Assembly (NCBI GenBank): GCA_947561715.1
Contig: OX387198.1
Coordinates: forward strand, 9,052,001-9,116,000
Origin: Ascidia mentula
Lineage: Eukaryota > Chordata > Ascidiacea > Phlebobranchia > Ascidiidae
Direction: 5' to 3'
Length of the DNA stretch: 64,000 nt
Both the position numbers and the translations under genes were made by a program. The notes under the pieces were generated by a model that saw only the letters and a list, made by a program, of their open reading frames with translations, was not told where the DNA came from and made no database searches. This document shows, in pieces, positions 9,058-59,854 of the stretch. Every line of letters begins with the position of its first letter. The stretch's first letter is position 1.

Positions 9058-12000
9058 CTAAAATGGTTTTGTTGAAGCCGAATGTTGCTGTTCTGGGGAT
9101 AGCTTGGGACTAGCTTCTATAGCTTGTTGCAAGTGTTCAGCTAGAAGGGCCTGGCCAGAATCAAAAAAATGCTGTATTATCTCAGCAGCTTCAAGCTTCT
9201 TTCCTTGGGCATTATAAATTTTCTTGAATATACATGCCAGAAGACTGCCCTTTGTATCTGTGCACAATAATAACTTGTTACCCTTAATTTGGATGCAAAA
9301 GATCTGAAAATAATATTTTAACTTAAGAAGTCGAAAAAGGCATCCAGGAACACAAAAAAGCATAATTTTTTTTGATATTGTGAATATTTAAACTTGCAAG
9401 TAAACAAAATATTGTAAACAAAGCCTTATTAAGCAAAACTTGTGCAATCATAATACCCTTAAAACACATACTCTTAGAAAATATATATTGCCACACACCT
9501 TTTGCTGCGGTGCAAAAGATCTCATTGAGGTTGACGTTAAACTTGTTTGCGAACTCCAATATTTGGTTGTCACTGATTTCAATCATATTTTGGTTTTCAA
9601 TTGTCAAAAAAATTTCATATATTGTTTCCACTGCAAAGAGAATTAGGGGCTATTATAAACTATGATAGAGATATTGTTGTGGAATTCCACATAGGTACAG
9701 GCAAACATGATTTTTGTTATATTTTAGCAAAGAAAACTTATCACATACTTTCATTCCCTTCTTTATATGGCTTGCTATTTTCTTCTCTATCCCAGCTTGG
9801 TGGAATACATTTAAAAGTGTCCTTGCTCGCTTCCAGTGGTTGTTGTTTCATCTAGATTGTTGAAAATGTATTGAAAGGAATGCACGAATGGAAACCAATA
9901 AAAACTCAATTCAAATAAGTGGTAAATGGTTTATTAATTGGCATAAATTACAACCAATTATGTCAAGTGATGTATAATCTTTTATTTTGGATGTGCTTTA
10001 CTTCTGTTTACATCCAGAACCACTTATGGCTACAATACCAAATTAGGTTTATGGTTTCTTACCACAAAGTTGTGAGCACTTGATGATATTTTTGAATGGG
10101 TTCCAGAAGACTGTCTACAAATAGAAAAATGAGAAACAAATTGTACAATAGAAATATACTTAAACCATTACATAAAGTACAGATGAGGCATTTAAAACAA
10201 AAACTGTCAAATTTTAATTAAGAAGCGATTTTATGTCTTGATTAGGCATAATAAGAGAAAAGGTTACATGTGAAACAGTAAAATCTGAACTTTTGTATTA
10301 GTAGTGTTTTGGCCTCGGTGAATCTTCTTTTCCATATATTACACAATTTGTATATTGTACAAACTACTGTTTTCCCTTTCTTACTCAGTGTAGGATTTGG
10401 AAGTGGCAGGCGTCTGTATTGAATTTGATGAAGAAAATGAGTCATTGTCACTTAAAGGTTTGCCCTGAAGAAAAGTTAGGTACTGGTAAGTGTATTAAAA
10501 TATTAATTTTTACCATTTAAACATTATGGCTGTGTTTTAAAAATAATTGGTGCTAGCAATGTAGCATGTCTTACTTTTTTGCGTGGCACTTCTGCAATAA
10601 CGTTACTTTCAGATCTTACGAACTTTGGTATGCCATCACTTCCATCACTAAAAATACATTTTAAATTATGATGTGAATGTGAACAAACCTAAATCAGCTT
10701 TCGGCGAACATTAAAACAAATTCAAAACTGTTGTGTTACTTGTGATATTAAGTCTATTTTCCTAGTCCTATTTAACATATTATCAGTTAATACTGTGTAA
10801 TTTAAAGTTTACTGTTTACTGTTCCTTACTGGATGCGGGGCTTGGGACTAGCAGGAATAGGCATTAAATTTGAAGAAGACGAGGTGTTATCACTTGAAGG
10901 TTTGCCCTGAGAAGTTGGTACTGGTAAGTTTTTTTTAACAGTTTTCAATAGGAACAAGTAAACCTTATGATTGTGTTAAATCCAACTAGTATACAACATA
11001 GAATGTCTTACTTTTGAATCTCTCTCTTCTTTAAAAACTTCACATTTGGATGTTTTCATTTTTCCTTGGTAACTGCTTTTATTTTTTTTTAAAAAAAAAC
11101 AATAGTCAATTTATGTTTTCCTTTTTACATAACTTGCTAGCATAACTATTATCAACATATCTGTTGAAACCTATAGAGGGATTTTATTGGCAAACGGAAT
11201 CCAGGTTTTAATAAAGTTGAACTTTGACCAATAAACCAAAACACCAGTAAAAAAAACAAAAGTCAAACTGCACACAGAGAATGCCAAGAACAACTAAAGA
11301 ACCACAGAGCGCTGGCAGACATAAGAAGCGTACATTTCTAAAGGCATGTTTAATTACATGCGCCCGTGTAAGCGTTGCGTTTGATCACCACAATATGTGT
11401 AAAGGTTAAATGGCTTTTTGATTTTTACTCAAAAACACTCCAAAAAAACACAAAGGTTGCTTAAAGTTTAACCAACATATTTAATTCAAAATAAATGACA
11501 AATTATATTTGAATAATTAGTGATGGCGTCTCCTACACAGTGTAAAGCCACAAAAAATTGTAATAGCTTAGTCATGTATTCATTAGTTATTGGATATTTG
11601 AATTACCTTTTCGATGGATGACAGAAATCTGTTTCTGAATGATCCTTGAACAACCGATCTGTACATTTTTTTCTAAAAAGTGCAATTTGCGTTGTTTGGT
11701 AATGTTTCATCATCATAAATTGAATTGACACATTGAAAAACAATCTTTAATTACATCTGTGGCAGTTCAGGATGCTTTGCCATACAACTGCTATCAATTC
11801 AATTGGAGTGAGATTGACAGGAATAACAATCTCTTGGCTCTAATACAGTGGTTCTTAACTGGTGGGACACAACCCCCACCAGTTACTGTTACATCACAAA
11901 AAAGCATTGTGTCACAAAAACAACTTTTTGATGATTCATCTGTTTCGTCGCTGTTCTCTCACTTTTATTTAAAATAAGCAAGCTGAACTTTACACATTAC

Positions 12001-13777
12001 GTTTGGCGAAAAGCAGTGTCAAGTCCAGTGGCAAATCTAGGGGGGTGTTTGGGTTTCAGAACACCCCCCTCAGTATTGTGCTATATTGTTTTGAGGGATG
12101 TAAAACTGTTAGTATTACGCAACGCAGGAGCGAACACTTCGGGTCAGTGTTTGTCTCCGCAATTTTTTTGTTTACCAGTCGTGCCCGATGCGTTCATGAC
12201 TCAAGTCTCTCACAGATGTGTAATCAAAAACCACAAAAACACAATTGCTTTTGGTATGAAACATATTTAAAATGTGTGAGGGGGCGGTGTACAGCACAGG
12301 GCTGTTACTAACGGGGCACATGATAGAAAAAAAAGATGTATAGTATTGTTGGTTCATTTTATCATTAAAGTTTCTTTAAAATAGCATTTAGATGACTATT
12401 TAATAATGTTACATAATAAATATCATTGGCATACCCATCAAAGTCTGTTGTGCTGAGCTTTTTCTCTGCTTGTTGAGTTCTCTTAAAACAATAGAAACTT
12501 GATTTAATAAACAGAAATTCATTGAACAGTGGGCCAATATTTTTGTCACAGACATAGACTAAAAGGACATTGAATATTAACTTGTGTGTTGATATACATA
12601 CATGGGCGTATCCAGGGGGGTCCGAGGGGTCCGGACCCCCCCTTTTGTGAAATATTTTGGTCTTTTTTGATAACTAAACAAACGCCACTGTATATTTTTG
12701 GTACCAGAAATTTTCTTTGACGTTGACCAAAAGCCCGCATCATTTTTCGTCAATTTACGGACGAAACGTCGTTTTTCAGTGGCCACATTGTAAGGACAAG
12801 CGGTTTACTTGCGTGAAAGGCAATTAGTTTAGTTGTTAAACTTTGAAAGCAGTAGTAATAAAACTACGGCGCAAGCACTACGGCAAAACCTCGCATCGAG
12901 TGTCCCATAGCGCTACACAATTGCGCAAGCCAGAAAGCCACCGTTTGTATGACGATTGGCGCGAACACCGGCGCTCGTATTTTTCGATTCTCGTCCACAA
13001 TTAACCTTGGTTTATACCTGAAAATCGGGGAATTTCCTACAAAATTTGGACCCCCCCCTATAAAAATTCCTGGATACGCCCCTTTATACATATATTACTT
13101 TACACCAAGAAAACTATAGTACATTACAAAAACTAAACATTATTGACATATGAGTTCATATGAAACACATTTAAAGATTAAGTTCTTTGCAAAATATCAG
13201 GTTTAGTCTGAGTTATGAAACTCACTTTATTGGTTTTCCTTCTTTTCAAGTGCCAGTAACAAAAATAAGCCCCAACTGCCAACAAAATCGCAACCACCAC
13301 AACAGTCACTCCAAACGCAATTGTGAAACCATTTGGTTTAGTTTGGTAGCTTTGTGCTGTGTTGTCTGTTGCAATAGTGCTTGCTGTGGTGGTGGTGCTG
13401 CTACTGCTGAGCGGAGAACTGTTGGTGGGTTGCACATAGCCTGGAATCGCATCGCAAGTTGTCTGGCTGTGGGCCTTTTTCAACACGGAAGTGCCCGGAT
13501 CACATTTTATGCATTTCGATTGAAGGTTGTTATTGCCACTGAAAAAAAGGCAGTTTTTATACTGTGGGCTATACCATCTCCCCATTTGTCCCCTATGCAT
13601 CTTAATTCATTCTATATTTCGGACACACCAGAGAGTTGCAGCTCACCTACAGATTTCCTCCAGTCTATAACCTGGTGGGCAACCACAGCAGTGCCAATCA
13701 CCAGAGTTAAATAGAGTCCGTCCATTCTCATTTGGTTCCAGATGTGGACATGGTGGTGGTGTCGGGGTTCCGTATAC
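9058..13777 (-). CDS. TNF-receptor-like death receptor A (5' end missing), at least 422 aa
   Basis: Eleven exons join in phase: 13647-13777, 13226-13538, 12435-12481, 11012-11072, 10830-10906, 10575-10647, 10385-10464, 10063-10114, 9749-9851, 9499-9630, 9058-9257. The first encodes a cysteine-rich repeat (PCPHL, then CCGCPPGYRL). The second carries CIKCDPGT, a Ser/Thr-rich stalk and a transmembrane helix (FGVTVVVVAILLAVGAYF) followed by basic residues. The last two encode the two halves of a death-domain-like fold. The Ser-rich exons at 10830-10906 and 10385-10464 both begin GKP(S/L)SDN and are duplicates. A signal-peptide exon is expected upstream, ending in phase 0, but was not found. Two large introns hold transposon remains. 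The family suggests a plasma-membrane receptor for a TNF-like ligand; the ligand is unknown. Confidence 0.8.
11845..11910 (+). mobile_element. Probable hAT-type transposon end (remnant)
   Basis: The sequence from about 11848, cagtggttcttaactggtgg, resembles the terminal inverted repeat of many hAT-superfamily elements. A matching opposite end was not found nearby, so this is likely a truncated relic in an intron of gene A. Confidence 0.4.
12604..13083 (+). mobile_element. MITE copy 2 with inverted ends
   Basis: The element begins GGGCGTATCCAGG and ends CCTGGATACGCCC. Both ends carry C/G homopolymer runs just inside. It is about 480 bp, encodes nothing recognisable, and is the inverted relative of the copy at 8318-8977. 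It sits in the intron of gene A between the transmembrane exon and the next linker exon. No convincing target duplication adjoins the ends. Confidence 0.75.
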
Positions 13778-16635: not shown

Positions 16636-19600
16636 CTACAGTTTTGTTTCCAGCACCGTCTGTCGCGTCTCGCGCGGCAAATTTTCTTCCAACTTTTGGG
16701 CAAGCAACACTTGTCGTGTCGACTTGAAGTATTGAACGATATCGTGTGACTGCAAGGAGCTGCCATTTGCATTGTAGATTAACAAAAATGTTTCAAGCAG
16801 ACATTCGCTCGTCGAACCTGAAGAAAATGATGGAAACATAGTGAGGTTTGGTGCAACACAATAGTAAGGTTTCAAACAGGACCAGTCCAAATCGGGCCCC
16901 GCAGAAACACAAACAAAATGGTCAAATCCCCCAACTTTATTGTCGGATGACCTTTTCTTAGGTAAAGAATAGGCCCCGCAAAAAGTTATAAATTTGCTCA
17001 TTTGGCCTATTTGTATATTTGTTAAAGTAAGTTTTTAAAACTGGTTGCCGGATAACTGAATTAGCTGCACTCCAGGGTCATTTAACTCCAATGGTTGGAC
17101 AATATTTTGGTTAAAAAGTTGCAGGCCGCGGATCTGCACAATGGCATAGGCTAACATTTACTTGTTTTGGGCGAACAAGCGAAACAGTCTATAATTTTAC
17201 TTGTTTTTGGGCAAACTGTCATATTGGGCCTTAAACGGCACTTTTTAACTTGAAAAAATTCCCATTTTTGGCAGACTGTAATCGAATATAATATATCCGT
17301 ATGGGATTATAATCAGACCAGGAAAAGTTCTAGGAACGGTATGAGCAAAAGACTTACTGTTACGTTTTTGGATTTCTTTCAAAACTTGCTCTCCCAAGTT
17401 GAAGGAACGACCGAACTTCATCACATCACTGTCACTCAATATTATATCCGGGCACAAGTTTGTAATGTTGGAAAAAAAATCTTTGATAGCTGACATTTGA
17501 CCTACACAAAAGAATTGACGTCAAACTTGGTATTAAGTTTCTGTATGCTGTTGTAATTTTTGTAGAAACATCACATAGCTAGGTATAATCTTTCAAACTT
17601 CCGATATTATTATAAAAATGAAATTTTCGTACATTTAAAATGAAACTGTGAGTCAGCGGACAAAAACAACTTACTTTCCTTCCGGTATTGGTTGGTTGTG
17701 GAGCGAGAGTTACTCCTGCTCCTTGCGTCTGAATCTTCTACATCAAATTCTCCAACTGGTGACACAGGTGTGCTCATGTGTTCTTGCTCTCCCGGCTCCA
17801 GCACCTTTGCCGAGCATACGCCTTTTGTATCCTGAATGTAGGTTACCATGTTATGTTGTTGCAGGTTAGAGATTAGAGATTTAATTCCAATGTTGACGTC
17901 ACGCTTACCTCGCAATAAACCTGTGAGTTGCCGTTTGTCTGACTTGTTTCGCCATTTTCTCTGGCTTTCTTAATGTCGACTCTGTGTTTGAGTAAAATTC
18001 GCATCGCGTGGAGCAAAAGTATAAAAGTTTGTACCAAATTCAAATGTTTAATGTTGAACTAATAAAATGATACAGTTCTTTGCAGGTCGTAATAGTTTGT
18101 CCATACTTTTGAAAACAAAATTTAGCATATGAGATGCAAGATTCGAGCATGCGTACAAACGTTAGAAATTGACTCACCTCAAATCGTCAGAATAATTTCG
18201 CGTGTGTTTGAAAGGTTTCAATGGGGCTGCCCTGCGTGTTAAAATAAATCCCAACTTAGAAATGTTTTTATGCAGCAGTTAGCAGTAATTTCTTACGTTG
18301 TTTGTTCTTCTACGGGTGGAAGGTGCTGCTCAAACAACGTGTTGCTTTCATTTGTTTCTTGAAGTGAAGACGTTACGTCGAAATGTTGTTTTTCCTGCGT
18401 AAAAGAATGTGTAAACGTTGTGACGTCACTTCAACACAATTCTAATACAAGTTGTGTTGTATGTTGTAAGTACCGTCGTGTTCTTTCTTCGTTTTCGGCG
18501 GTAGCAAACAATTGTCGGTATTAAAACGCAGCAGCTGACCAACAAGGTGAATGAAATGACGAGCAAGTAAAAATCTGGTCAAGAAAGGCGCATTAGCAAA
18601 TGTCGCAAACATTCCAAACACTATTTGGTGCGATTCAATGTTGGTGATGGATAACGAATAAGTTTTTTATGAACGTTACGTCAACATTCTAAATGCCTTT
18701 CCCTTTTGTTCAGTAATAAAGCATGGCTTCAGCATAAAGATATTTCAGTCACTACTAACTTGTATGGTTTTCGGTAGTGACTACCTCCGTTCCAGTTGTC
18801 ACTTTTGTGTGCGACTTTAACATAAAAGATCGCTTATTGCTGAAAGGAAAGGACGTTAAAATACTCTGTACAAACCCGTCATAACTGGACAAATACGCAA
18901 TATAGCAGAACAATGACCTTGTGGAATGTGAGATTACTGTTGTTGGCATTTCTGTTTTGTTTATGACTGTTGTTGTTGCTGGTGGAGATGTTGTGGTTAT
19001 TGTAACAGCAATTGTTGTGGTGGGACGGTTGTCTACATCGCAAATCCTTTTATTATGGGAGTTGTCGGTAACGTAGAGTCCTTTTGCGCATCGTTCACAT
19101 ATGGTGGTATTGAACTTTCCAGGTCTGTATTAAGGTTACAAAAAAACTGTAAAACCAGTGCTGAATATATGCTGGAACGATCCGGAACGCCGTTCCTTAA
19201 AAAAAAATTCTTGCCAGTTCGCCGTTCCGGTATGAATTCAACGACATGTGTATCCCAAATACATGACAGAAACTAAAATTTTGTTCACTATGTTAGGATA
19301 TGTCGCAGAGTATACGAAGCCACAATGGTTTGTTTTTTCTGTCAATTTAATCGTTGCGGTAAGAATGATTTTTACTAACAACCCTGATTAAAACGACACC
19401 TTCATACATAGGCCGAAGCACCATCACCATACAGACGTGACATTTTTCAAAAAGGTAAGTTTAACAACCTAAGGGGGCGTGGGAGTTCTATTAAACAAAA
19501 CAGTATCCATTATTGCAGTTCTTTTGCTAGTATTTTTGCAAAACGAAAAACAAACTCACATACGTAATTTTGAAATTGTTGCACTTTCCCATAACTACAG

Positions 19601-19931
19601 TGTTTACTTACATGCAACTGAGCACCAGTCTAAATCCTGGCTGACATCCACAGCAATGATGTGTTTCTCCATTCTCACCCATCTCGATTAGTTTTCTGTA
19701 TAAACCCTCTTTGAGATGTGGACAGGGGTCAATTGAGCGACTCTTTTCAACAAACGTATGTCAGAAAAAATGGTTGTTGTATGCTTTCAACATTAAAGTG
19801 CTCTAACAGTTTATATTTATACTCACTCTGGGCTTGCGGCCGTATGCAGTGACGGACACAAGAATGATCCACGACGTGCAAATTTTTAAGAACAGAGTGC
19901 CACAGTTAGTATGAATATATTTTACTTCCAT
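16636..19931 (-). CDS. TNF-receptor-like death receptor B, 443 aa
   Basis: Eleven exons join in phase: 19827-19931, 19612-19742, 18918-19124, 18760-18839, 18474-18574, 18297-18394, 18178-18231, 17909-17981, 17675-17831, 17358-17501, 16636-16817. Residues 1-35 hold a signal peptide (ATG at 19931). The first cysteine-rich repeat (about 36-79) has DPCPHL and CCGCQPGFRL; the second begins PGKFNTTICERCAKG. A threonine-rich stalk leads to a transmembrane segment near 176-198 (FYLLVISFTLLVSCCVLIPT) and a basic stop-transfer. The cytoplasmic part has five linker exons with two TRAF2-type motifs, SLQET and PVEEQ, before a death domain (about 336-430) split at phase 1. Inferred role: plasma-membrane receptor signalling through TRAF-like and death-fold adaptors. 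Confidence 0.85.
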
Positions 19932-22353: not shown

Positions 22354-25001
22354 TTACATGTCACTGCTGGTTGTAAGTAAGTCCTTTTCAAGAGTTTCAG
22401 CAAAGCAATTCATTTGTAGCTCTTTCATTTTGTCAATAAACTGTTTGACAGTAAAATCTTTTTTACGGTTCTGACAGTGAGTCACAATGCTCACAAAATA
22501 CTGAACCACATCGCCTACACATAAAACAATTTTTCAATACAAGTTACGATAGATAAATTCGATACAAGTTACAATAGATAAATTCGATAGAAGTTACAAC
22601 AGATAAATTCGAAACAAGTTACAATAGATAAATTCGAAACAAGTTACAATAGATAAATTCGATACACGTTACAACAGATAAATGCAATTTCTGTGAGCTG
22701 CAGACAGATGGCCATAGCTCACAAATCATATTATTGGCTCCACTTTTCTTGGATAAATGCAATACAAGATACAATAGATTTTGCTTACCCTCATGTTGTT
22801 TTGAGATTTGATCACTGTCAATTTCACCGATTCCAAGCATCCTTGCCAGTTTTCTTCCTTCCGCATGGGTGAGGAGGATGTGTTTGTGCTTGTAAGGAAA
22901 CACAGTGATGGCTTTCTTCACTAAAATTGTTACAAGTTAAATGACAGTGGAAGCTTTATGAAGGCAGAAAGAACATAATAACTCTGGGTCTAAGAGCAAG
23001 ACAATCATGTGGCTGTAATCACATTTATGTTAAAGTAATGTATTCCACAAAGAAAAAACAATTTCAACCATACCATAGAGAGTTTGTTAGGTGTTTATTC
23101 AAAAAAATAGGTATCAATGCAAATAGACATTATCATATGTTAGAAAATTTTGCTGTAGTTTTGTTTATTTTTTGTTCTCTCCGACATAAGATCACAAATA
23201 CACTTATGCAAGAATCCAAAAAAATGTTTATCCCAAAACATTATGACAGATGGTAAAGTCTATAAGGGATTAGTTTAAAACTTACACAAGTCAATGTTTT
23301 CTTTGGTGGTACATTTGATCACAGTTGCTCGCTGCACGGCAGTGTATGCTGGAAGAGCATCGCCATGTGCCGTATCCATTGTTGTTTGTATACTGGATGC
23401 ACTTTTGTTCTTGTTAATAGCCTCCACCTCTTCTTTGCGTTGTATTTCCAACAGTTCGACAGCTTCATTTGCTCTGCACCAATACAAGAAACAAATAATG
23501 GCCCACAATGCACAAAAGAGCTTGCTTTTAAACATGATAAGCCTGGCATTGTTTCAACACATATTTTGTCTTTTCGGCATTGTCTAACGTGTATATCATT
23601 AACAGAAATGGCAGAGATTTCCAGTTTTTTTGGTATAGACTCAAATATGCACACAACCAGGAGTAAGTAGGCTCATAATGTTGATACATCTCCTTTTTTA
23701 CCCATTGGTGTTGCCGCTTCTAATGTTTTCTTCCTTGTACATCCCATCCTGGTTTTGTGCATGGTTCACTGTCCTCTAAAAGAATAAATTTTGTTACTTT
23801 AGGACAATCAGAACCATAGCAGTATTACATTCAAAAAATAGTTTTATTGAAAATATTTTAGGACATTTGTACCTATTCAGGGTAAAAATTTTTTGCACAT
23901 ATTACACTGACGTAATTGTCTAACATCCATTATGGAGAGTTTGCATAATATTTGCAAACAAGTTTTTGAAAATGACTTTGCTGTAGTTCCAGACTTTGCA
24001 ATGGAAAAAAATTATTTACCTTTGAGCATTTTGAGCAGAAGATTTTCTTCCAGCTAACATCAGGCGACTTACTACAACCAATTACAACCAAGACGGCAAT
24101 TACACCAGAAACAACACCAACACCAAATGATATTATGTCTGTTGTCATGCAACAAAAACAAACAGTTTATATTTTGAACAGCTGAATGGCTCAAGGGCAA
24201 CATACCTGACACTTCAATAATATTACCACTTGCTGGTGATTTTGTTGTTGGTGGTTCAAAATCTGTGACCAAACATGTTGTTTTGTCATGTAGCTTATCA
24301 GGAATATAAGTTCCATCCTCACACTTTTCACATTGTGTAGTATTGTATTGCTTGAGCCTGCAAGATAAAACTGTGATTGGTATGACCACATGCTAACCTA
24401 ACGACACACAACTAAAGAAAGAAATAATTTTTAACAGAACATGTTAAAAAATTAGTTCCACTGTACAGTGCACAAAACAGGTCAAAGTGACTTTGCAGTT
24501 ATTGTTTGCAGAAACTTGATTTAAGTGTATTACTTGCAGATTTTTACAAGTCGATGATTTGGTGGACATCCACAACAGCGTCTCAAAGTATCATCCTCAG
24601 ACATTTTAATGAGTTTTCTGCCATATTCATCTCCCTTCAAATGTGGACATGGATCAGAGAGGTCTTTCACATTAACTTGCTGAAATGAATAAAGTAAATA
24701 CAATTGATACAAATGTGGTGAATAACAAGACTTAAAATGAGTGGCAGGGGATCAATAAGATTTTCATTGGAATGCAGAAAAAATTCTTTTTCCAACAAAA
24801 ATTTTACTGACGCAGTGGTAGGCCATTGTGATTTGCATTTTGTGCATACTGACATAAAATAGCACCACCAAACAGGACAGGGTGATTTGTATTGTTTAAC
24901 AACTAAATTTTACAACATTTTGGCAAAGCGGATAAAACCAATTCAATACAAAAGAAACTTACCCCCAGAAGACTAAGACTCAGCATCAATGGGAAGAGCA
25001 T
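22354..25001 (-). CDS. TNF-receptor-like death receptor C, 336 aa
   Basis: Eight exons join in phase: 24963-25001, 24534-24679, 24206-24357, 24020-24138, 23702-23775, 23286-23473, 22789-22920, 22354-22514. Exon 1 encodes a compact signal peptide (MLFPLMLSLSLLG). The first cysteine-rich repeat (about 14-61) has DPCPHL and CCGCPPNHRL; the second has CEKCEDGTYIPDKLHDKTTC. A transmembrane segment lies near 115-137 (IISFGVGVVSGVIAVLVVIG). Only two linker exons separate it from the death domain (about 240-330). It is the shortest receptor of the array and perhaps nearest to the basic plan. A 25-bp minisatellite lies in the intron that splits the death domain. Confidence 0.87.
22539..22687. repeat. 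25-bp minisatellite in the death-domain intron of gene C
   Basis: Six head-to-tail copies of a unit like acaagttacaatagataaa followed by ttcgat, with few changes between copies. A seventh degraded copy lies near 22750-22778. It starts 25 bp from the splice acceptor of the last exon. Confidence 0.85.
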
Positions 25002-31961: not shown

Positions 31962-31964
31962 CAG

Positions 31965-37951: not shown

Positions 37952-40900
37952 CTAAACTGCTATGTTCATTTTGCGGGCCAGGTAATCAGCCAGGTCCGGC
38001 TTGTGCTCCATCCAATAGTTGATTAATTCTTCTACGGTGAAACTTAGCGAAGTAGCACGAATGGCTCTGAGGGTGTCCACGAGGTACATTACAATGCTTT
38101 CATCTAAAAATGACTTGAAAGTATTGATTGTGCCCCAATGCTTTGGATGCAGAAAGGGCATTTTAGACGAAGTTAAACCAATTTACCAGCGATTTGACAG
38201 ATGGCATTCACAGCGACGCGACAATATCAAGATTACCTCAAACATATTTGGGTTACGTTTACCTCTGTTAAAAATTCTCTTTAACTCATCCTGTTTATTC
38301 CTGTTAACTTTCCAACGAGCAGATAGTCGGGTCACGTGTAGTGATTGTATTGGTACTGTTGTATGAAGCAAGTGGTCTTCAGCTTCGTCAACTGTTGGAT
38401 TGAAACGTAACTCTTTTTTGTTTTGTTTGATAAAAGTGTTTTTATCTTTACGATATAGAGCCGATAATACGTTTATTGAGCTGCAGAATTGACAACTAAA
38501 TAGCCAAGTAAACTAGGTATAACCCTTTCGAAACAAACAAAAGTGATAACACTATGTCCAAGCAAATGCAAAAAGCAATAGTGCCTTCAGGTTCTGCGAA
38601 GCATCTCGCCAAAGAAGTAATGTGGAGAAAATCTAATACACATGAATGTGTACACGTCCTGTTGCGACCTGCACGATTGACTGCTACATACTTTATTCTA
38701 TACCCACTTACGTTTGCGGTTTCGCTCATCGTGGTCTATTTGGGGTACTTCCCGCTCTGTTCTTCCATGCTCCTGGTGTTCTGGAACAAACGCGCCATCT
38801 TCATCGTGCATGTCGTGTGTATTGCTAACGGACACGCGCGGTATGCGCGGAGGCTCTCTAGTCTCCGTCGTTGGTCCTCTGGCGGGAATGGAGGCTTGCT
38901 TGATTGGCGGATCTTCTATGGTATTTCCCATCAGGGGTTCATCTTCTTCGTGCGAATTCTCGCTTACCAACGATTGGCTAAAATCATTTTTATGCATGTG
39001 AAAGTTGGGCGAAAATTCACAGTATAGAAACGCTTACAGCACTTCGCTTGTACAATAAGAAACAAAACAAGAGTAAACTTTCGGTTAGTGATTGTTGATG
39101 GCTTGTCACGATAGATGCTGTTACACAGTTGTAATTGGTCCCCATGTGAAGTGAAATTATGCCACGAAAATGTGGTAGAGTTTGAATGTTGGCCTTTCCA
39201 ACTCATTCCCGAACCATATTTTTTTGCGCTGAGGGATGAATTTTAGAGATACTTACGTTTCAATATCCTTCTTTACATGTATTTTTGGCACCTTCCCCGA
39301 ATCCTGGCTTGACTCGCTGCTGAAAAAAAAAAACAATCAGTAACAACTCTAACAATTTGAAATTCACTGTTTTGGCAGTTTTCCTTTCAGCTTAAACCGT
39401 TTCGATTGGGTGTGCCTTTGTCCCATTTATTATTCAGAAAGTAATTTGTCTTTTTGACAAACTTTTTGCCACACATGATCATAAATATCGCATTTGACCC
39501 TTCGTGAAGGACGGGGAGTCTAAGACAAGAGACAAAAACATTTGTACAGTAAATTGTTGAAATTGTTTGCTTTTCAAGTAGTAAATAATTAACAACACCG
39601 AACTACTGCGATTACAGTTCTTCTCTGATTTCAATTGTGAAATCACACTATCCCAGAATAATTTCCAGCAACAGCAAAATCGAATTTTAATACAGAACCC
39701 TTAATAATTTGTTTTTTACCGTAATATATTTTAAAACATTCTACTGAACTACGATAATTTGTATTTACGATCACTGTACGTTACAGAAACATTTAACTTA
39801 CAAGTGTTCTTCATGTGCATCAACATCAGTGTTCTGAGTTGGTAGGTTGTGTTCACTTCTATGACAGAAGGTTTTTTTACTCACTTCTGTGCGTTAGGTA
39901 TATTGACTTGTTTGGGTGTTCGACATATTTTAAATCATACACTTAATATAAATGAACGGTAGGCTACAACATTATGTGTTACATTTGGTGTAAGTCAGCA
40001 GTACTGCGTTTCGGCGTGTGGTTTTAGCAATGAATGACAAACAAAGGTCAAATGGTAAAAACAAGTGAGTGTACTCACTTATAAGTCACTATTTAACTTG
40101 TGCGCAGTCCTGAAAGCGATGTAAAACGATCGAGAAAATCACAATGGCCCAGTTCCTCCTATCGTAGTTTCGATAGGTGATACCCCCAGGTAGGAACACT
40201 AGTTCCGAGGTTTCTTTTTATTATTAGGGTATGACGTAAACTGTTTTTCAATTGACTTACGGTTGTGAGAAAGCAGTACCCGTTTGTTCCGACTCGTTCT
40301 CAGATTGCTGTTCAATGACATGGCTGAAACAATAACACAAGCCGGATTGAAGGTATGTTGGTCACAACGTCAATGTATTAATGTATGCTGGTAGATAATT
40401 ACGACGTATTTACCTTTCCGATACAACTTCTTGGTCGCTATTTCGTCCATTAAATCTGCAAAATGATTTCAATTTCGTTAGGTCTATTAACAATTTGTTC
40501 TGGCGATTTGTTTCTAAAACTAAGACCAAGGACACAATTTATGTTCATATTTGTTTTTTGTCCACCATTTATCACAGCAAATTGCGTCCCAGCAATTGAT
40601 AAAGGACCTCTTCTTTAATTCTTAATTTTGAGACTTCGCTTACCTTTTAAGTAGGTAAACAAGTTATATTTATATTGCGGTATCTATTACACAATTTTGA
40701 CAAAAACCTCGCTGGTTTTCAATTTACTTACGGTTCTGAATGAGCTGCATCACGTGCGTTGTCAGATTGCTGGGCCATCATTAGTCTAAAAAAAATATGG
40801 TAACTTTTTTAACCTTAATTTTTAGCACATGTAATCTAGAACAAAACAACTTGATGTTGGAATTATTGGCAGGCATTGTTTTGATAGAAGTGGACAAAAC

Positions 40901-42399
40901 ATTTGGCTTTACTAACCTTCCAGATTCAACATCTTGATCGATATTTTGATTGTCAGAGCTGCAAAAAAATGGATTCAGTATTATTGCAATAAATTTTGTT
41001 TGTTGGCTGTTTTTTTTTAAATCTAACTTGCAAAGGGAAATCAAAAAACTTAAACAATCTTTTGTGCATACAAAGCAAGTGATTTTGACAGGTTTAAGCT
41101 AAGATGACCATGTTGATTAACCCTGATCGGACTAACCTTACTATGGATGTGGATACAGATTCTTTTATGTCGTTTGTTCGCAACCTGGAAATTTTGACAA
41201 CTCAGAAATAAAACCAGTAGCTTGACTTATGAGTAAAAGTGATTGACTGAAAATTATTGGCACTTCTAGCAAAGTGTTTGATCAAAAACACCACATATGT
41301 ACTCACACAGTTGACATCCATTGCCGGAATCTCTGGAGAAAACTCTGGAGAAAACTCTGCAGAAAACTCTGCAGAAGTCGCGAGTAAAAGACATGTTCTT
41401 TTAAGCAGACGAATTTGTTTGCCTTATCATACCTTTATTTTCTTTCTCCAGAAGCCTAAGAGGCATATTACAATGATTATACTTCCAAAAATGATGATAA
41501 CATCAATGTAGTTAGATTCTGTATGCTCATCAGCCTTTGTTGTAGTTGACGATACGTCTGTCGTTTGCTGAAGTTCTGGTGAACTGGTCGATGGGACGTT
41601 AGATTCGCTACTGGTAGTTGGTGGTTGTCTATTCGTTTCTTGTCTAAACAAGTATGAAGATTACGAGCAAACTTAAATCAGTTGCTGAAAGAGAGCTTTT
41701 GTTGCTTACATGTTTGACGTTTCCTGTACCACAGAAGTATGGAAGTCTTTTAAAGGTTTGCAGTCTTCTAAACCCTTTATGTGAGCAGTATCGTTTATTC
41801 CTGCCCCAGGTGGGCAGGGCAGGCAAAGGGTGTCATCTTGTTTCTTGCTGCGTAAAGATAATTTATTATGGATCGTTAAACATTACGGAAAACTAATATA
41901 CGGTAATGTTTTACCTGCACGCTTTTTGAAAATACATGTTAACCCCACAAGCACAACACTGAATTAAATTTCCTTTTCCGTCGAAAACCGATTGAAGTTT
42001 ATAATCTTTGGTTTCAAGACTGGGACATGGATCTGTTTGGGATATTTCCTTGACCTTATCTTTGTGTGTCAGAACCCCCTGCAATACAACAGTTTACAAG
42101 GGTAACCCAACAGAAAAGTGTTCGCAAAAAATTTCCAAAACTTTTGTGGAATTTTTTTTTGGATGAAGGACTTTTTAAATCTACATTTGACACCGAAACA
42201 CTGTATAAAAGACTTTGGTCGACGTTTTGGGTTTAAACGATATCTAACGAGATACATCTTACCTAAGTCTAAAAAATATATTGCACCATAAAGTATTTAT
42301 ACGAATACAGCAAACACTCATAGATCTTCATTAACTTACCTTGTTTCCCAAGCAGCAACCAAGCGCTGCATAGAATATGATATTTGTCAGCCCCCTCAT
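37952..42399 (-). CDS. TNF-receptor-like death receptor E, 518 aa
   Basis: Fifteen exons join in phase: 42340-42399, 41915-42078, 41710-41847, 41433-41643, 41307-41368, 41137-41184, 40917-40958, 40732-40785, 40414-40455, 40261-40323, 39802-39858, 39257-39319, 38712-38977, 38257-38391, 37952-38103. Residues 1-20 are a signal peptide. Cysteine-rich repeat 1 has DPCPSL and CCACGVNMYF; repeat 2 has CLPCPPGAGINDTAH. The transmembrane segment is near 168-188 (VIIIFGSIIIVICLLGFW). Two duplicated pairs of small phase-2 exons lengthen the cytoplasmic part, and PTQNTD fits both the PxQxT and PxQxxD TRAF-binding patterns. The death domain is at about 424-518. The 12-bp-repeat exon 41307-41368 is the least certain. 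Confidence 0.82.
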
Positions 42400-44246: not shown

Positions 44247-46672
44247 TCACATCTGACACGAAAGCGGGGCGATCCCGTGCTGGACCGGACGGACAAGACC
44301 CATCTCTTGACTGACAAAGTAACCCAAGGCTGGCTTGTGCTGCATCCAGTAGGCCACTATATCATCAACCGAAAGATTGCTATTGGAATCGCGGATGGAC
44401 CAGATAACCTCGACGAGGTATTCTCTTACATCGCCTATGAACAAAATAGGTTAATTTTCCGTTAAACGTGTAGCACGAATCACAAAGATGTGAATCAAGA
44501 ACTATTGCATAAGTACAAACTTATGTAAGTACAAACTTATGTTTAAAAATCTGTTGCTTTTTTACGTTTTTCAAACTTCCGTTCTAACTCGTCTTGTTTG
44601 TTGATGTTGAGTTCAAAGTAAGCGGCAATTTGCTTCACGTTAAACGGTGTCACGTATATGTTTGCTTTCATGTGGAGTAGGTGCCTCTCCAATTTTTGAA
44701 CTGCAAAGCAATTAAAATGTTAAAGAATTTCCACTACTAGCTGGTTCTTGGGTCCTAAGAGTATTCTTGGGTCTAATATTTGTAAAGGTAAATACATATA
44801 TGGTTTTGTGCGATTAAAGTGCGTCCTGCAAAGTTAAAGAATGTACATTTAAATTTGCTGTTACCATAATATATTGATTGTGGTTGTGAACTTTTCAGTA
44901 AATTTTGCAAGTTAAACATCACTGAGGGACGAATATATCCCTCTGTGGACTATTTCCAGTCTAACGTATTTGTCGCGTACATTGGCGAAGACGCTCCGTT
45001 ATATTTGGCTGCGACGTTGCAATTCCAATTTCTTCATGGTCAATGTCGTTTTCAAAAGCTTGGCGCAAAGGAGGATCTGGTTCCTGAATCAACGTTGATG
45101 GGGAGTCGTCACCAATGGCTTTGTTCTGCTCGATGGCACACCCTTCAGTTACTTCCTTTTGTTCACTGAGAACTGCGCAGACCTTCGAGGGCGGTACAGG
45201 ACCGCTTTTCACCTGAACCACGACGTTGTATAATATGTAAGACGCATTTCTATATTGTATATTTTTGGAAAAGGAACATACTTCGAACTCTGATGAGTCG
45301 ACAGGTTTCCAAGTCTTTGTCTTTGAAATGAACTCCTTCTGCAATGAAATACGTCATTCTAAATTGCAAGTCTAGGAACTGAGCATCACGCAATCTGTTA
45401 CCTTTTTCTTCATTCGTGTCACCCAATACAAAAATAGCAACATGACAATAACCACGCCAATCAGAAGAAAAAATCCGTAAAGCAAAACCAAGCTTGTTTC
45501 GTTGTTGCCTTGATCTTTTGAGAGAAATACTTGTTTATCACCAAAGTTTAAAGGTTCGATTGTATATTGTACCAACCTTGTATCCGAACAAAATCCGATC
45601 GTTTAGCAGTTTGTTTTTTGGCGTCCCAACACAAAATTAGCAACATGACGATAACCACGCAAATCAGAAGAAAAAATCCGTAAAGTAAATCCAAGCTTGT
45701 TTCGTTGTTGCCTTGATCTTTTAAGAAAATACTTGTTTATCACCAAAGTTTTTGGATTGTATTGTAAGGTTGAATTGTATTGTACTAACCCGATCGGTGC
45801 TCTACACACACAAGATGACTCATGTGCCTGAACAGCAACTGCTTGCCATTTAGCAGTTTGTTTTTTGGCGTCTTTAAAATCATCTATTTCTTTTCTTGGT
45901 TGTGCGGTTTTTGGTTCAGCATTAGGCCTGAAAGAACAAATTGGTTTGCACGGCATGTGTAGAAGCAGCACCAAAAAGGAAATATATGTGCTTTGATTAT
46001 GTGATGGGAATGTCGCGGGAAATGAACCTTTATTACACCTACATACATCGCCCAAGTGCTCTGAAAGGTAATGTCAAAATAGAAAAGATTTTCGGAAAGC
46101 GCATCTTTTGTGCCATTTCTTACCCGAATGGCTGCACCTCAATCCCAATCCTTTATTTATCGCTGGGGTGGAACGGTTGTCAATCGTTCAACGCTACATG
46201 GCGCTTTTAACACATAAAACGCTAAAAAGTTTTACTTACAAACATGGGTCTGCGTTCTGCGCGCTCAGTAGGTCCTTTGCACCCGGTTCATTAAAACTTA
46301 TATCTTCACAATTGTCATAATATTGTATCAGAAGAATTTCTCCATTAACGTTGATTTTCTTTGTCCTGTTTAGATCAGAAGTCGAAGTGATTTTACAGGG
46401 TTTAAAATGACCATGGTAATAAAATAACTTTTTAAACTCTTTTTAACCTGTAAATGTTTTTCAGCTCCCTGCATCCATCACTACGGTTGAGAACAAGTCC
46501 GTCAAACGGGCAGAAGCAGGACCCTGCTGTAATTTGCCCCATCACATGCTGTAAAAACGTATTTTATTTTTGTTTCTAAACAATGACTGCTGATATTTTT
46601 CATATTTACCATTTGCTGATTAGTCAGGGGAAGCATCAGAATGATAATCTTCGACAGATTTTGAAGCGACAT
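44247..46672 (-). CDS. Death receptor F with divergent ectodomain, 404 aa
   Basis: Nine exons join in phase: 46610-46672, 46448-46548, 46240-46365, 45790-45927, 45402-45576, 45282-45338, 44981-45212, 44566-44700, 44247-44434. A signal peptide (residues 1-21) is followed by an ectodomain without DPCPHL; instead it has SCFCPFDGLVLNRSDGC, resembling the second-repeat type, then two cysteine-poor exons. The transmembrane segment lies near 172-194 (LLYGFFLLIGVVIVMLLFLY). The linker has IQEPDPP, shared with gene G. The death domain (about 298-390) is closest to that of G (TPFNVKQ, INKQ). A tandem relic of the transmembrane exon lies in the intron 45577-45789. Confidence 0.8.
45600..45789 (-). pseudogene. 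Tandem duplicate of the gene F transmembrane exon
   Basis: This stretch repeats the acceptor region and body of the exon at 45402-45576, including DQGNNETSL and LLYGFFLLI. Its far end repeats DAKKQTAK from the end part of the preceding exon 45790-45927. The duplicate has a one-base length change before DQGNNETS that shifts its frame relative to the used exon, and it lacks a GT donor at the matching place. It therefore looks like a decaying exon copy rather than an alternative exon. Confidence 0.7.
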
Positions 46673-49279: not shown

Positions 49280-49427
49280 GTGAACACTTTTACACCACGT
49301 TACATACCAGGAGTAAGGGGATGACCGTCAGTGAAAACACAAGTTGACATTTAGTTGTGGTTTGGTAGTTAAGTGAAATTTCAACGTCGGTCGGTTCCGG
49401 TATGTAACGTGGTGTAAAAGTGTTCAC
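49280..49427. repeat. Perfect 29-bp inverted repeat around a 90-nt loop
   Basis: The arm at 49280-49308 (starting gtgaacacttttacaccacg) is exactly reverse-complementary to 49399-49427. The size suits a very small MITE or a transcribed hairpin. No flanking target duplication was seen. Confidence 0.85.
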
Positions 49428-49927
49428 CGATCTGGGAATTTAGCATTCATACAACTCGAATATAAATTGCAGAAAGTTGGCGGTCAAAACTTGCGTCCAG
49501 GACAAGAGTGAAAAGTTTCTCGCGAAAAAAACAAGTGCTTGTGAAACGTTAAAATACATATCCATTATCTGGCCGCACTCCAAGAGCGTTCAATCACAAA
49601 TGGGTCCCAAAGTAAAACCGTCTAATCTAAATGTATATGTAACACATAACCCTATAGTGGTGACCAAGTTGTACATTTTTTACTTTTTTTTAGCAAGAAA
49701 CCGTTCACTCCTGTCGTTTAAACAGATCTTTGAAAAGCTCACAGGGCAATACTTTCAAATTAGCCTTGGAATTTGTGTTTCGTGGTCCGAATTGTATCAT
49801 GTGGCGATCTGCCGAGTGCTAGCTTTAAAGAAACCGATTTAAACCCTAGTGATTTGCTTACATTAGAAAAGCACATGTGAAGCCCGGGAGGGTCGGCCCC
49901 AATACAGAACCGACCCGGAGCGGACAT

Positions 49928-52900
49928 CTAATGGGGACTGTCCACCCCTTGAGCCATCAGGTATCTCCACAGCTCGGGTTTGTGTTTCTTCCAGTAATCA
50001 AGCAATCTTTCCACCGTGAAATCGGTGGAAGTCTCTCGGATGGATCGAATAACTTCAACCAGATACCATCTTACGTCCCCTGCGTATAGAAATATTCCTT
50101 AGTTAGTGTATGTCGCAAACTGTTTGTATTTTAGGAACACTATTTACGGATTTGCTCATAATTCTGAGAATAATGAGACTGGCCCGTTTGCCAACATTGT
50201 TATGATTCATACGAAAAAACGTTTCGGCAAGAACTTATTTTTTCATCAGTTTGTTTGCATTTTCATTGGAAAGTGGTTTAGTGACGTTGTTTTTTTACGT
50301 GTGATTACCTTTTCCACACTTCCGCTCCAACTCTGTCTGTTTGTTGATGTCCAGTAAAAAAAAAGATGCCAACTGCTTCACGTTAAACGGGGTTATAACA
50401 ATGCCGGTGACGTGCGTTAGGAGAGCTTCCAGTGAGGTAACTATGAAAAGACATCATTTAGATATTCAGCGTTGAAATAGGAAACTCTATGGTAGGCATT
50501 AGATGGTGCACATAATCACACAACATTCAGTGCATCTTTTCGTAACACAAACTGGCTTTCAAGGAACAGGGTTACCTTCACAAGCCAATATGTGTCATGG
50601 TTGCAAAAAAAAATCCCGGCAATGAGAATCTCAATTAAAACAAAAGTTTTGAAAACAGATTACACGCTTCCATTTCATAACATGTGTTCGTCTCGCAATA
50701 TTATAGGACGTAAAAACACAGTAACTTCAAACATGTTCAAAAGACCTAACTAATTCATAATCACCCCAACAATTCCACGACTCATTGACTTACATTTTCT
50801 CTGGCGCTCCGTGTCATTAGGTACTGGTACGATGTTTCTTGGAGGAGCGTTGGGGATTGCCTCCCTTCTTTCCGGGAAAACGCCGTCGTGTTCTTCCCTG
50901 TCGTTGGAGTTTGTAACAGCCCGTCGCGGCGGAGGATCTGGTTCGTGAATCAATGCCGAAGGGTGATTGTCACCAATGGCGTCGACCTTGTTGGTAATCG
51001 GTCCTCCAGTTGTTTGCGAGGATTCGATGAGAGGTTGGGATTGCTCGTCTGTATCGCTCAACTCAGCCTTTTTGGATGTTTTGGGCACTTTAGTTTCACT
51101 GAAAATATTACTTCATTGTACCTTCAGCATGTCATAAATATGTTATCTTATGGCTACCTGACCCAGGTTACTTTTGCTTCGTCATCGCGACTGCCTTGTG
51201 GACGAGACCTGGAAGAAAATGCATTTGTAATCATACAACTACTTTAAACTGTTATGGTGAAAATGTACAATTACCTTCCTCCCCCATTTCCTCCAGTTGA
51301 GTTTATACTATTAAAATATGAGTGTAAAACACACATTTTTTTATCTATTTGCAATATTTCATATATTGAAATTGTTTGTAGATAAATTACTTTATTTACT
51401 ATTGGAACCAACAGGGTCATAAATTTTGACAAAAAGATATCACAAGTTTATACAAATTTTCGTTAATCTTTCAACAACAAACATACGTTTCAGCAGATTG
51501 ATCAGTACTTTCAATTGGGGAAGCCAAGATCTTCAATAAAAATCGGTTTATTATTCGATGGGTATCCTATCTTACACAACTAAATACCTTTTTGCGTTTA
51601 TTTCGTCTCCGGTGACGATACAGCTTCCTTCCCACATACAGAATAATCCCCAGAGCAATAAGTGATAAGCACCCAATCAGAATACCAACAATTTTTCCAT
51701 TGTTGTGGTTTTCATCGCGTCCAACTATATAATTTAAAGTGTCAAAATTTAAAAAAAAAGTTATTTTTTTAGAGTATATTTAGACCAACCTGTACTTTGC
51801 TTTGTACTCGATGTTAGTGGTTCCGCGGTGTGTGGAGATACAGGGATAGAATGACGTTTGGCCTCATTATCAACGTTACTGTCGAAGTCAACCGCAGGAG
51901 AATATGCAGCCTTTGTTGTCGACCTGTGAAAAAGAAGCCGAAATGTTTTATATTGAGTTACTTCGTGCTACATGCCCGGCCACCTGTGAGGGTGCTGGTA
52001 GCAGGTAGCTTTGTTTGATTTGGATGACTGAGATTCAGACGCACGGGTCCATAACACAAAAGGCGACAACACACTTTGTACAATAGCGCTTTATTCATTT
52101 GCTTTATCGACTTCTTTAAATACCTCGTACACCGCCAATAAATTAAATGAAATGGAAGAGGGGCTAAGAAAGGAACAACGGGACAAACAAGTTGTACTGA
52201 TTTCTCATAACTGGGAATGTGAACATAAGTCTAATATACAACTATTTAACATTGTGCAGCCTATACCCACACACTGGATATAACAAGAAATCATGATGTG
52301 TGCTCTCCACACACGAAACCTGATGATGCACAGAAACTGTATTTACTAAAGTTCCACAATTTGCTTTATGACTTACCTCACTGTGGGGACATTCAGTATG
52401 TCCAGAGGCTCCAGGTTTTTGATCGGTGTGCAGTCCGCTAATCCTTTGACATGAGCTGTATCATCTATTTCCGTGCCAGGAGGGCACGTCCTGCAGTCAG
52501 TTGTGTCGAAATATCCCGATCTGAATAAAATCAAATACCAATACATCCGCCGCCAATATATTACAAACAAGGTAACAACAAACAATGGCAGTGGATATAC
52601 AAAATATACACGTGAAATATACAAGAAGACACACAAATATACACGTTCTACAATGCTTTGTGATAGTTGCGAACCTGCAGACTTTGTCCATGTACATGTT
52701 GCGCCCACAAGCACAACAATACACAGATTCCCCATTTCCATCAAAAACTTCGAGAAGTTTCCTTTTATCGGTAATCAGGTGAGCGCAGGGGTCGACCTTC
52801 GAATACTTCTTCACCTCGCTTTTTTGCCCAGCAACTTGCTTAAACACGAAAACATATTTCCACGTTATGCCTCATTATAGCAACGAAAACACGCAGTAAG

Positions 52901-53011
52901 AGTAGGTCTACAGATTAGCACCCCAGCACAGTGGGATTTGGGTATTACCTGACAAATTGTCAGAACTAATACGAATCTCCACATACTTTGGATGATCGAC
53001 TTCACTTCCAT
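49928..53011 (-). CDS. TNF-receptor-like death receptor G, 452 aa
   Basis: Eleven exons join in phase: 52949-53011, 52675-52838, 52377-52520, 51790-51923, 51588-51724, 51487-51530, 51275-51307, 51158-51208, 50794-51098, 50309-50440, 49928-50079. Residues 1-21 are a signal peptide. Repeat 1 has DPCAHL and CCACGRNMYM; repeat 2 has CRTCPPGTEIDDTAHVKG. A Ser/Thr-rich stalk precedes the transmembrane segment near 179-200 (IVGILIGCLSLIALGIILYV), followed by a strongly basic RHRRRNKRKK. The death domain is at about 359-452. The ectodomain is nearest to gene E, while the linker (EPDPPP) and death domain are nearest to gene F, so the gene looks mosaic. Confidence 0.87.
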
Positions 53012-53174
53012 TTTCGTGTAATTTTTTAGGAATTACAAATAACAGTCAAGCAGAAAATTGAAAGGTTCTATTTGCACTGACCGCAAATGCAAAAATGTCT
53101 GAATTGACAAACACTACTTCAATTTAAGGTTAACATGTAAGCATGCCCTAGTTTATATAATAAACTTAACACAA

Positions 53175-57339: not shown

Positions 57340-59854
57340 TCACGGCTTACGAAGCTCATCCAACAGGAGTTCGTACACTCCCAAAAGCTTGTTGTCCCAA
57401 AAAAACTTCAAGACTTTGGCTGCAGTCAAACTGGTGCCGTGTGTGGTGCAAAGATCTTTAAACACCTCAACTAAAAAGCCGGAGGTGGTGTCTGGACAAA
57501 AACACAAACGTTAACAGATGTTTTTCAGTGTGACTACATACTTTGGGGCATACCTGCGTCACGGTCAGCGGCATTTATCAAGTCGTCGTTCAGTTTAAAA
57601 TGACGTCCGAAATGTTTGACGTCTTCTCTCCTCAACGGGATGTTATTTCGTCGCCTCATGGAACTAAATGCGCCGCTAACTCTTTCCTCTGTTCAAAAGA
57701 AAAATTTAAACAGATCAGGGGACGCGGGTGTATGTAAGGTCAATCTCGTCTGCAACTAAACATAGAGTAATTCTTGCGAAAATAAGGACTTTTTATGTTT
57801 GGTCTTGAAAATCTGTTTTTCGGAACTTACTTTGGATAGTCACAGACAAACGTGTCCGAAATTCAGGCATTTCGTTTTCCTGGTCGTGTTGAGTTTGTGA
57901 GTTTGAAGCTCCTTGGTATCTTATCTGGGTTGGGGGTTCTCTGACGGTAGCCGGGTCGGAATAGGGAGTTTGCAGAGGGTCGGCAAGATTTTTAGAAGTC
58001 GATCGTCCGCTGACGTGTTGCAGTAACGTTAAATTTTCCACTTCTCCGTCGCTGCCTGTGGGGAGTGACTCGTGTGACTGCAACGAACAATATGCTTTAG
58101 TGTTTGTTGTATAAGTCATACAAAGGTTGGCACTTCACGGCAATTTTTTTAACTGTGCTGGTGTTGTCGCAAATACCAAATACGCTTAGTACACGTATAG
58201 GAAAATGCAGAACCACATTAGAGCACCACAAATTGACTTTGTGTAAAATGAATGTTGTATAAAGAAATGTTATTTCACCTCTTTTCTACGTTCATTCACT
58301 GTGGAAAATACTCCGTCTTGTCGCCTGTTTTGGTCCACTGCCGGTGTGTTGTTTCTATCGATGTATACATAGGTCTTTAGCTCAGAGGAAACAGGAATGT
58401 AATCGTGAAACTTACCCTCTCGTACCAACACCGGTGGAAAAAGTGTCACGTGACGAGCCTGGTTCTTGTCCTGCTTCAAATTCGCCTAAGAAACTTCCAC
58501 CATTGCCGCTGTCGCTTCCAACGCTATTATCCCCAACTCCTTTCTTCTGTTATGATATTTCGTAATAGTCGTAAAGAGTTTTCAAACCTTCTACGCCAGC
58601 TTACCTTGTCGTATAGGCAACTTGTTTTATGTTTACGGCAACATAACACCACCACCACCACCAAAATTAACACCATTATGCCACCAATTATCGGACCAAC
58701 AATATTCCACGGAAAACCATTGTGAGTATCTTCAACAAACAAGAAAAAGAGCTTAACATGTATATTTGAAAAAAAGCCGATGTTGATTGATATCAGCACA
58801 ACAACAAATAAAATTGATTTTCTAAATGTCTCACCGTTTTGTTTGTTCGAAGGATCCAAATCATTTGATGGCGATGAAGACGAGTTTTTATTCGACTTCC
58901 TGCGATGTAAAACAATATTAATACGGATGTACATCACTAAGAGCTGCAGACAGGTGTACAGACTGTTTTGACATGTAAGGTCTCATCAGTGCAGCTGGTG
59001 ACTGTCGCACTGTGCTAGCTGGTAGCCTAGCAGGCACACAAATTTTCACTTTTTGCTACCTTTCGGTGAATCGTTGATATGTTGAGTACTAAACTACTAG
59101 GTACCAGTGTGTACACCTGTATGCAGTTTTCATTGGCTATTATGGCTCCTTTGCGCATACAATACATCACTAAATTTCATTAAATTTATAGGAACTGGAA
59201 GGCTATGACTTACATTTCAACAGGCGGTTTATCTGTGGTAAGTTCCTGGACTGGAATAAGGTCGACGGGTGGTTTCTGAACGCATTTGTTGCGTCCTTCT
59301 AGATGTGCGAAAGCACTGAGCACGAGCCCATCAGGGCAGGGAAAACATTCAGTCGTGTTTGGGGAATTTTCTCTGTGCAATGAAAAAACAAAATTAAAGC
59401 GTTTTACAAAGACTCAGCGACCACTGGATGCGCATCAATTTAATGGCCACTTACACGCAAGCTTCACTATAGAAAGAGTTCGGCGGACATCCGCAGCATT
59501 GATAACCCTCAGGAACCCGACGTGTTTTCCTAGTTTGGCCATCGGGCAATTCTAAATGTGGGCACGGGTCCATACTGTGAATCCTGACAGCTGATTTGTG
59601 GTCGGCTCCTGTCACCTTAAACATACAAACCAATATTGAAATACGCACGTCACATAACCTTAGTTTTGGTAGGAAAACGTAAATTTACAAACTGTCTTTT
59701 CACTTACCTTAGAAAGCGCAAAGATGCATAAGAGGAGGAATCCGAAGATAACTGTAGAAATAGTGGCAGGTGAATGGAAGTATTAACGTTTAATTTCTAG
59801 CATGTCACGTTTAATTTCTCCCTACACAATGCGCTTACCTTTCTTTTTAAGCAT
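57340..59854 (-). CDS. TNF-receptor-like death receptor H, 436 aa
   Basis: Ten exons join in phase: 59839-59854, 59708-59751, 59455-59615, 59214-59372, 58835-58899, 58605-58729, 58279-58485, 57831-58077, 57554-57688, 57340-57491. The signal peptide is split over two exons (MLKKK, then VIFGFLLLCIFALSK), unlike the other receptors. Repeat 1 has DPCPHLELPDG and CCGCPPNSFY; repeat 2 has CFPCPDGLVLSAFAHLEG. The transmembrane segment near 158-177 (IVGPIIGGIMVLILVVVVVL) is followed by CCRKHK. Two long linker exons precede the death domain (about 342-436; RREDVKHFGRHFKLNDDL, then LTAAKVLKFFWDNKLLGVYE). A GT-AG intron inside 58279-58485 is possible, but the whole stretch is open and reads through in phase. 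Confidence 0.86.

What the first reader, a model, noticed from the sequence alone, without database searches (positions are those of the whole stretch)
9058..59854. Array of eight tandem death receptors, all on one strand
Eight genes with signal peptide, TNFR-like ectodomain, one membrane segment and a split C-terminal death domain lie in 51 kb with no other clear gene between them. Seven are complete and phase-consistent, so this is a living array, not a set of relics. Vertebrates have several clustered TNFRSF genes, but a run of eight death-domain receptors with such variable linkers is unusual and suggests a lineage-specific immune or cell-death system.
Basis: partly seen in the sequence, partly recalled or inferred. 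Interest (0 to 1): 0.88.

Follow-up and report, generated by a model that had tools for sequence, protein, structure and literature searches.

The report
Eight tandem sea-squirt death receptors
A sea-squirt chromosome carries a row of eight old, diverged genes that look like miniature TNF-type death receptors which standard domain searches miss, hinting that sea squirts have more cell-death receptors than has been counted.

Summary
The array is real. The window matches chromosome 2 of the ascidian Ascidia mentula. Eight minus-strand loci share one exon plan: signal peptide, cysteine-rich exons A and B, membrane segment, variable linker, and a C-terminal domain cut by a phase-1 intron. Five chain from ATG to stop (genes 2, 3, 6, 7, 8); gene 5 has an unresolved linker, gene 1 no signal peptide or linker that I found, gene 4 no exon B. 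No further copy scored in 20 kb either side. Silent sites are saturated, amino-acid change is not: old, constrained genes. Pfam does not recognise them. Family profiles do: the C-terminal profile's best PDB matches are FADD and Fas, and all five ectodomain matches are TNF receptors, best HVEM; a reversed ectodomain control also gave one unrelated hit, so that half is weaker. TNF ligands, a FADD-like gene and a DED caspase are present. Best reading: a lineage-expanded set of short death receptors signalling through FADD and caspase-8. Expression and signalling are inferred.

The parts
57340..59854 (-). Gene 8, 402 aa. Start 59854-59839 and 59751-59708 (signal peptide), A 59615-59455, B 59372-59214, membrane 58899-58605, linker 58077-57831, DD1 57688-57554, DD2 57491-57340
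   Evidence: Open ATG to stop, in phase; exon choice
49928..53011 (-). Gene 7, 399 aa. Signal peptide 53011-52949, A 52838-52675, B 52520-52377, Ser/Thr stalk 51923-51790 (placed by eye), membrane 51724-51588, linker 51067-50794, DD1 50440-50309, DD2 50079-49928
   Evidence: Open ATG to stop, some weak splice sites
44247..46672 (-). Gene 6, 381 aa. Signal peptide 46672-46610, divergent A 46548-46448 and B 46365-46240, membrane 45576-45402, linker 45338-44981, DD1 44700-44566, DD2 44434-44247
   Evidence: Open ATG to stop; A and B not found by the exon profiles, so their identity as cysteine-rich exons is tentative
37952..42399 (-). Gene 5. Signal peptide 42399-42340, A 42078-41915, B 41847-41710, membrane 41643-41433, linker within about 39033-38712 (junction unresolved), DD1 38391-38263, DD2 38103-37952
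   Evidence: N-terminal part open, death domain open; linker splice not resolved
32624..35549 (-). Gene 4, truncated ectodomain. Signal peptide 35549-35493, A-like exon about 34704-34541, membrane 34501-34311 (as chained), linker 34042-33762, DD1 33525-33394, DD2 32796-32624
   Evidence: Chain from the membrane exon to stop; chain with ectodomain failed; no exon B found
22354..25001 (-). Gene 3, 327 aa. Signal peptide 25001-24963, A 24679-24534, B 24357-24206, membrane 24138-24020, linker 23520-23286, DD1 22920-22789, DD2 22514-22354
   Evidence: Open ATG to stop, in phase
16636..19931 (-). Gene 2, 394 aa. Signal peptide 19931-19827, A 19742-19612, B plus stalk 19124-18760, membrane 18574-18474, linker 17831-17675, DD1 17501-17358, DD2 16817-16636
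   Evidence: Open ATG to stop, in phase
9058..13777 (-). Gene 1. A 13777-13647, B plus membrane 13538-13226, DD1 9630-9499, DD2 9257-9058; signal peptide and linker not found
   Evidence: signal-peptide searches

Best explanation
An old, lineage-expanded tandem set of short TNF-receptor-type death receptors in an ascidian. Each protein has a signal peptide, about one and a half cysteine-rich repeats (an HVEM-CRD1-like repeat plus the start of a second), one membrane helix, a fast-changing linker, and a C-terminal death domain whose coding is cut by a phase-1 intron near its middle. Most likely working: a TNF-family ligand clusters the ectodomains, the clustered death domains recruit the FADD-like adaptor, and its DED loads the DED caspase, starting extrinsic apoptosis. 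Shown: gene order, exon plan, phases, coding constraint, profile links to TNF receptors and to Fas/FADD, and the presence of candidate ligand, adaptor and caspase genes. Inferred: expression, ligand binding, adaptor recruitment and cell death.
For: Common exon plan, five open ATG-to-stop chains, junction phases. pS 0.65-0.99 against pN 0.30-0.56 in 14 comparisons. DD profile against the PDB: 15 of 26 hits are FADD (11) or Fas (4) and the first 11 are FADD, best E 0.0021; with two relatives added 15 of 22, Fas first, E 0.014; column-shuffled control one unrelated hit, E 0.49; profile-profile score not reached by any of 100 shuffles. Ectodomain profile: 5 of 5 hits are TNF receptors, best E 2.8e-4. 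A multi-repeat gene with a TNFR_c6 match above cut-off and relatives of exon A and of the split domain lie together at C2:7.806-7.818 Mb. TNF ligand, DED and FADD-like candidates, caspase by motif. In Ciona a DED caspase takes part in tail regression (PMC10923776, passages).
Against: Pfam gives no TNFR_c6 match and no significant Death match. The DD search also lists 11 unrelated chains of 26, two chlorite dismutases (0.021, 0.022) ahead of Fas, and E-values worsened when relatives were added. Profile-profile probability is only 7.9%, over 32 columns. The reversed ectodomain profile hit an unrelated cytochrome construct at 1.5e-4, so the ectodomain E-value alone is not decisive. No fold prediction and no transcript data. 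Three of eight genes are not complete in my models.
Confidence: 0.6

Rival explanations
1. They are TNFR-type receptors, but their death domains mainly drive NF-kB or JNK signalling in inflammation or development, as vertebrate TNFR1 or EDAR can (recalled), rather than apoptosis.
For: Death domains differ strongly among the genes (mean identity 0.18), which allows different partners; linkers are long and variable.
Against: The DD profile matches FADD and Fas and no other death-domain family among its 26 hits; FADD-like and DED-caspase genes are present. I did not search for TRADD, RIP kinases or TRAFs.
Confidence: 0.25
2. They are cysteine-rich receptors with a helical tail that is neither a TNF-receptor module nor a death domain; the profile matches are chance.
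For: Pfam blindness; the reversed-profile hit; the low profile-profile probability.
Against: Two separate halves of the same proteins point to TNF receptors and to Fas/FADD, in the order expected of death receptors, and a neighbour cluster links them to a recognised TNFR gene.
Confidence: 0.1
3. The array is a set of relics or unexpressed copies.
For: Gene 4 lacks exon B, gene 1 lacks a found start and linker, some splice sites are weak.
Against: Five open chains and strong excess of silent over amino-acid change.
Confidence: 0.05

Closest known systems
Vertebrate death receptors (Fas/TNFRSF6, the TRAIL receptor cluster TNFRSF10, TNFR1; features recalled)
   Same: Signal peptide, cysteine-rich ectodomain, one membrane segment, C-terminal death domain; the TRAIL receptors are also a tandem cluster (recalled)
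   Different: About one and a half repeats instead of several (recalled), far diverged sequence that Pfam does not recognise, eight genes in one row
HVEM/TNFRSF14 first cysteine-rich repeat
   Same: Best ectodomain match, aligned cysteines
   Different: HVEM has no death domain (recalled)
Three TNF receptors of Ciona (PMC4979521 Table 1 and PMC10923776, passages)
   Same: Ascidian TNF receptors; three loci here carry conventional TNFR_c6 repeats
   Different: Table 1 lists Ciona with 3 TNFRs and 0 with a death domain; here at least ten further receptor-like loci (8 in the array, 2 at C2:7.81 Mb), the C2:7.81 Mb pair by its death-domain exons
Tunicate TNF ligand expansion (Marin 2026, PMC12843592)
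   Same: Rapid tandem duplication in the same signalling system, up to 14 ligand genes per species (abstract, section 12)
   Different: Ligands, not receptors; 'mentula' occurs 0 times in its main text

Membership tests
TNF receptor superfamily | Cysteine-rich repeats of the TNFR kind | tested here: inconclusive
   Family profile hits only TNF receptors, 5 of 5, but Pfam TNFR_c6 gives no match and a reversed control scored once
TNF receptor superfamily | Type I membrane protein: signal peptide, ectodomain, one membrane segment | tested here: met
   Five genes read complete with an N-terminal hydrophobic stretch and a membrane exon; judged by eye and by hydropathy, no dedicated predictor
Death-domain receptors | C-terminal death domain | tested here: inconclusive
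   Profile matches FADD and Fas at E 0.002-0.11, shuffle controls negative, but Pfam Death best E is 0.096 in 1 of 8
Death-domain receptors | Binds a TNF ligand and recruits FADD or TRADD | not testable with these tools
   Only candidate partner genes could be found
Tandem paralog array | Copies derive from one another and form one clade | tested here: inconclusive
   Shared exon plan and phases, but 0% of 200 bootstrap trees make the eight one group against the three C2:7.81 Mb rows; long branches

The most novel reading that the evidence does not exclude
Ascidians hold a class of minimal death receptors, unseen by profile databases, that keep one ligand-binding face while their death domains have split into different outputs, so that one or few TNF ligands are read as different cell fates: the reverse of the usual immune receptor array. 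The reported absence of death-domain TNF receptors in Ciona would then be a search artefact.
Probability: 0.25. Interest if true: 0.75.

Novelty: new variant of a known kind. Interest (0 to 1): 0.52.

Why it matters
[quoted passage not shown] An eight-gene array that Pfam does not see suggests that such counts may be too low, and makes it testable whether extrinsic apoptosis in tunicates is driven by receptors. It also supplies a receptor side for the tandem ligand expansion reported in 2026 (PMC12843592).

Tried and rejected
Single-sequence Pfam scans gave no TNFR or significant Death match. Recent segmental duplication was considered because stretches downstream of genes 5 and 7 are 80-93% alike; saturated silent sites speak for old genes with a younger repeat beside them, but I did not test the repeat's copy number. 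A tree of 11 death domains joins genes 3, 5, 6 and 7 with support, but has very long branches and does not make the array one group. A signal peptide for gene 1 was sought three ways without success. Counting homologues in other tunicates was not possible: no other tunicate genome was searchable. Literature searches for tunicate or tandem death-domain TNFR expansions: in an open-licence library; among the titles and abstract beginnings listed (listings of 980 and 38 papers were cut to 25 and 20) I saw no such receptor array. The row g5_DD was read from the wrong phase and its stops mean nothing; one search has it open.

Full report
Where it is. The window is G000:C2:9052001-9116000 in a genome of 195.8 Mb in 79 contigs. 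All seven contig lengths that I saw (C2, C52, C67, C69, C71, C72, C73) agree within 0.01 Mb with chromosomes 2, 3, 4, 5, 7, 8 and 9 of Ascidia mentula (passages of PMC11109543). The published total is 197.0 Mb in 95 scaffolds, so the held copy is not identical in extent. Two weak exon matches to glycoside hydrolase family 6, in animals a tunicate mark (recalled), were found. I take the source as A. mentula chromosome 2.

The observation. Stop-to-stop frames and an all-against-all comparison showed repeated exon classes on the minus strand. An assembler that I wrote, with a simple splice matrix, gave one plan: start exon, phase 0, exon A, phase 2, exon B, membrane exon, phase 0, linker, phase 1, DD1, phase 1, DD2. 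Genes 2, 3, 6, 7 and 8 read from ATG to stop without an inner stop.

Constraint. In 14 comparisons over nine gene pairs, pS is 0.65-0.99 and pN 0.30-0.56. The copies are old and their proteins are held back from change. This says nothing on expression.

What the domains are. Pfam does not recognise them: ten models or domains (five joined by hand), eight DDs (Death at 0.096 in one member, with other families better), and two exact ectodomains. A profile of the eight DDs against the PDB gave 26 hits: 11 FADD, 4 Fas, 11 unrelated, the first 11 all FADD, but two chlorite dismutases ahead of Fas. With two relatives added it gave 22 hits, 15 of them Fas or FADD, Fas first at a weaker E of 0.014. 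A column-shuffled control gave one unrelated hit at 0.49. Profile-profile comparison with six other death-domain sequences of this genome gave score 18.6, E 0.0043, probability 7.9% over 32 columns; 0 of 100 shuffles reached the score (best 15.2). A profile of six ectodomains (genes 4 and 6 left out) gave five hits, three HVEM and two DcR3. Its reversed control gave one hit, a cytochrome construct at 1.5e-4, so the weight lies on the identity of the five hits and the aligned cysteines, not on the E-value.

Relatives in the genome. Pfam TNFR_c6 is over its cut-off at four places in three loci, C72:4.57, C2:7.806 and C73:14.80 Mb; the C72 and C73 loci show conventional repeats. A protein search with gene 3's ectodomain found seven places, six in the window and one at C2:7.813 Mb; gene 2's death domain found four, all in the window. 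At C2:7.813-7.818 Mb lie an exon A relative (E 2.7e-7) and two split death domains with the same phase-1 junction. Pfam Death finds 17 places in the genome and none in the window. A tree of 11 death domains supports genes 3, 5, 6, 7 together, but in 0% of 200 bootstrap trees are the eight one group against the C2:7.81 Mb rows. So the array is part of a wider, older receptor branch on this chromosome.

Likely working. Pfam TNF matches over cut-off lie at C71:4.39 Mb and at three spots in C2:5.885-5.905 Mb, six of seven places listed. A 255-aa frame carries a DED (3.7e-17) and a sub-threshold Death match (0.001), the order of FADD. One frame holds two DED matches over cut-off followed by a caspase-like stretch recognised by its active-site motif from recall, with no Pfam run on it. 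[quoted passage not shown] Ligand clustering, FADD recruitment and caspase activation is the simplest mechanism, by inference.

An unexpected pattern. In 15 of 15 pairs among six genes, the ectodomain core without its cysteine columns is more alike than the death domain (means 0.28 and 0.18; bootstrap interval of the mean difference 0.02-0.19; the pairs are not independent). A pathogen-binding array should show the reverse. This hints that the outputs, more than the binding faces, have diversified.

Novelty. PMC4979521 lists Ciona with 3 TNFRs and 0 with a death domain (passage). PMC12843592 (outline with abstract, passages, section 12) treats tunicate ligands; the receptor passages that I saw are general. 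My searches listed no paper on a tunicate death-receptor array, in an open-licence library only. Miniature ectodomain plus death domain, in a row of eight and below Pfam's sight, makes this a new variant of a known kind.

Noticed in passing
window 32819-33356: A minisatellite (units of 24 and 76 bases) fills most of the intron between DD1 and DD2 of gene 4.
   Followed up: no
window 45422-45762: The membrane exon of gene 6 has a second, 90% identical copy beside it, a recent exon-scale duplication.
   Followed up: no
window 36766-37934 and 48534-49875; 29550-29846 and 31665-31961: Non-coding stretches downstream of genes 5 and 7 are 80-93% alike, and another pair is 98% alike, though the genes themselves are far diverged; probably younger repeats.
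   Followed up: partly
L004-L007 (G000 C2:10.580-10.595 Mb): Four Pfam Death exons, two of them nearly identical, stand close together on the same chromosome: another death-domain tandem cluster of a different kind.
   Followed up: partly
G000 C2:5.885-5.905 Mb: Three spots with TNF ligand matches on the same chromosome as the receptor array.
   Followed up: no
window 61298-63748: Diverged direct duplication, pieces 70-91% alike; no Pfam match in the ORF tested there.
   Followed up: partly
window 8319-8977 and 12606-13079: An inverted pair of stretches 75-81% alike, likely a mobile-element pair.
   Followed up: no
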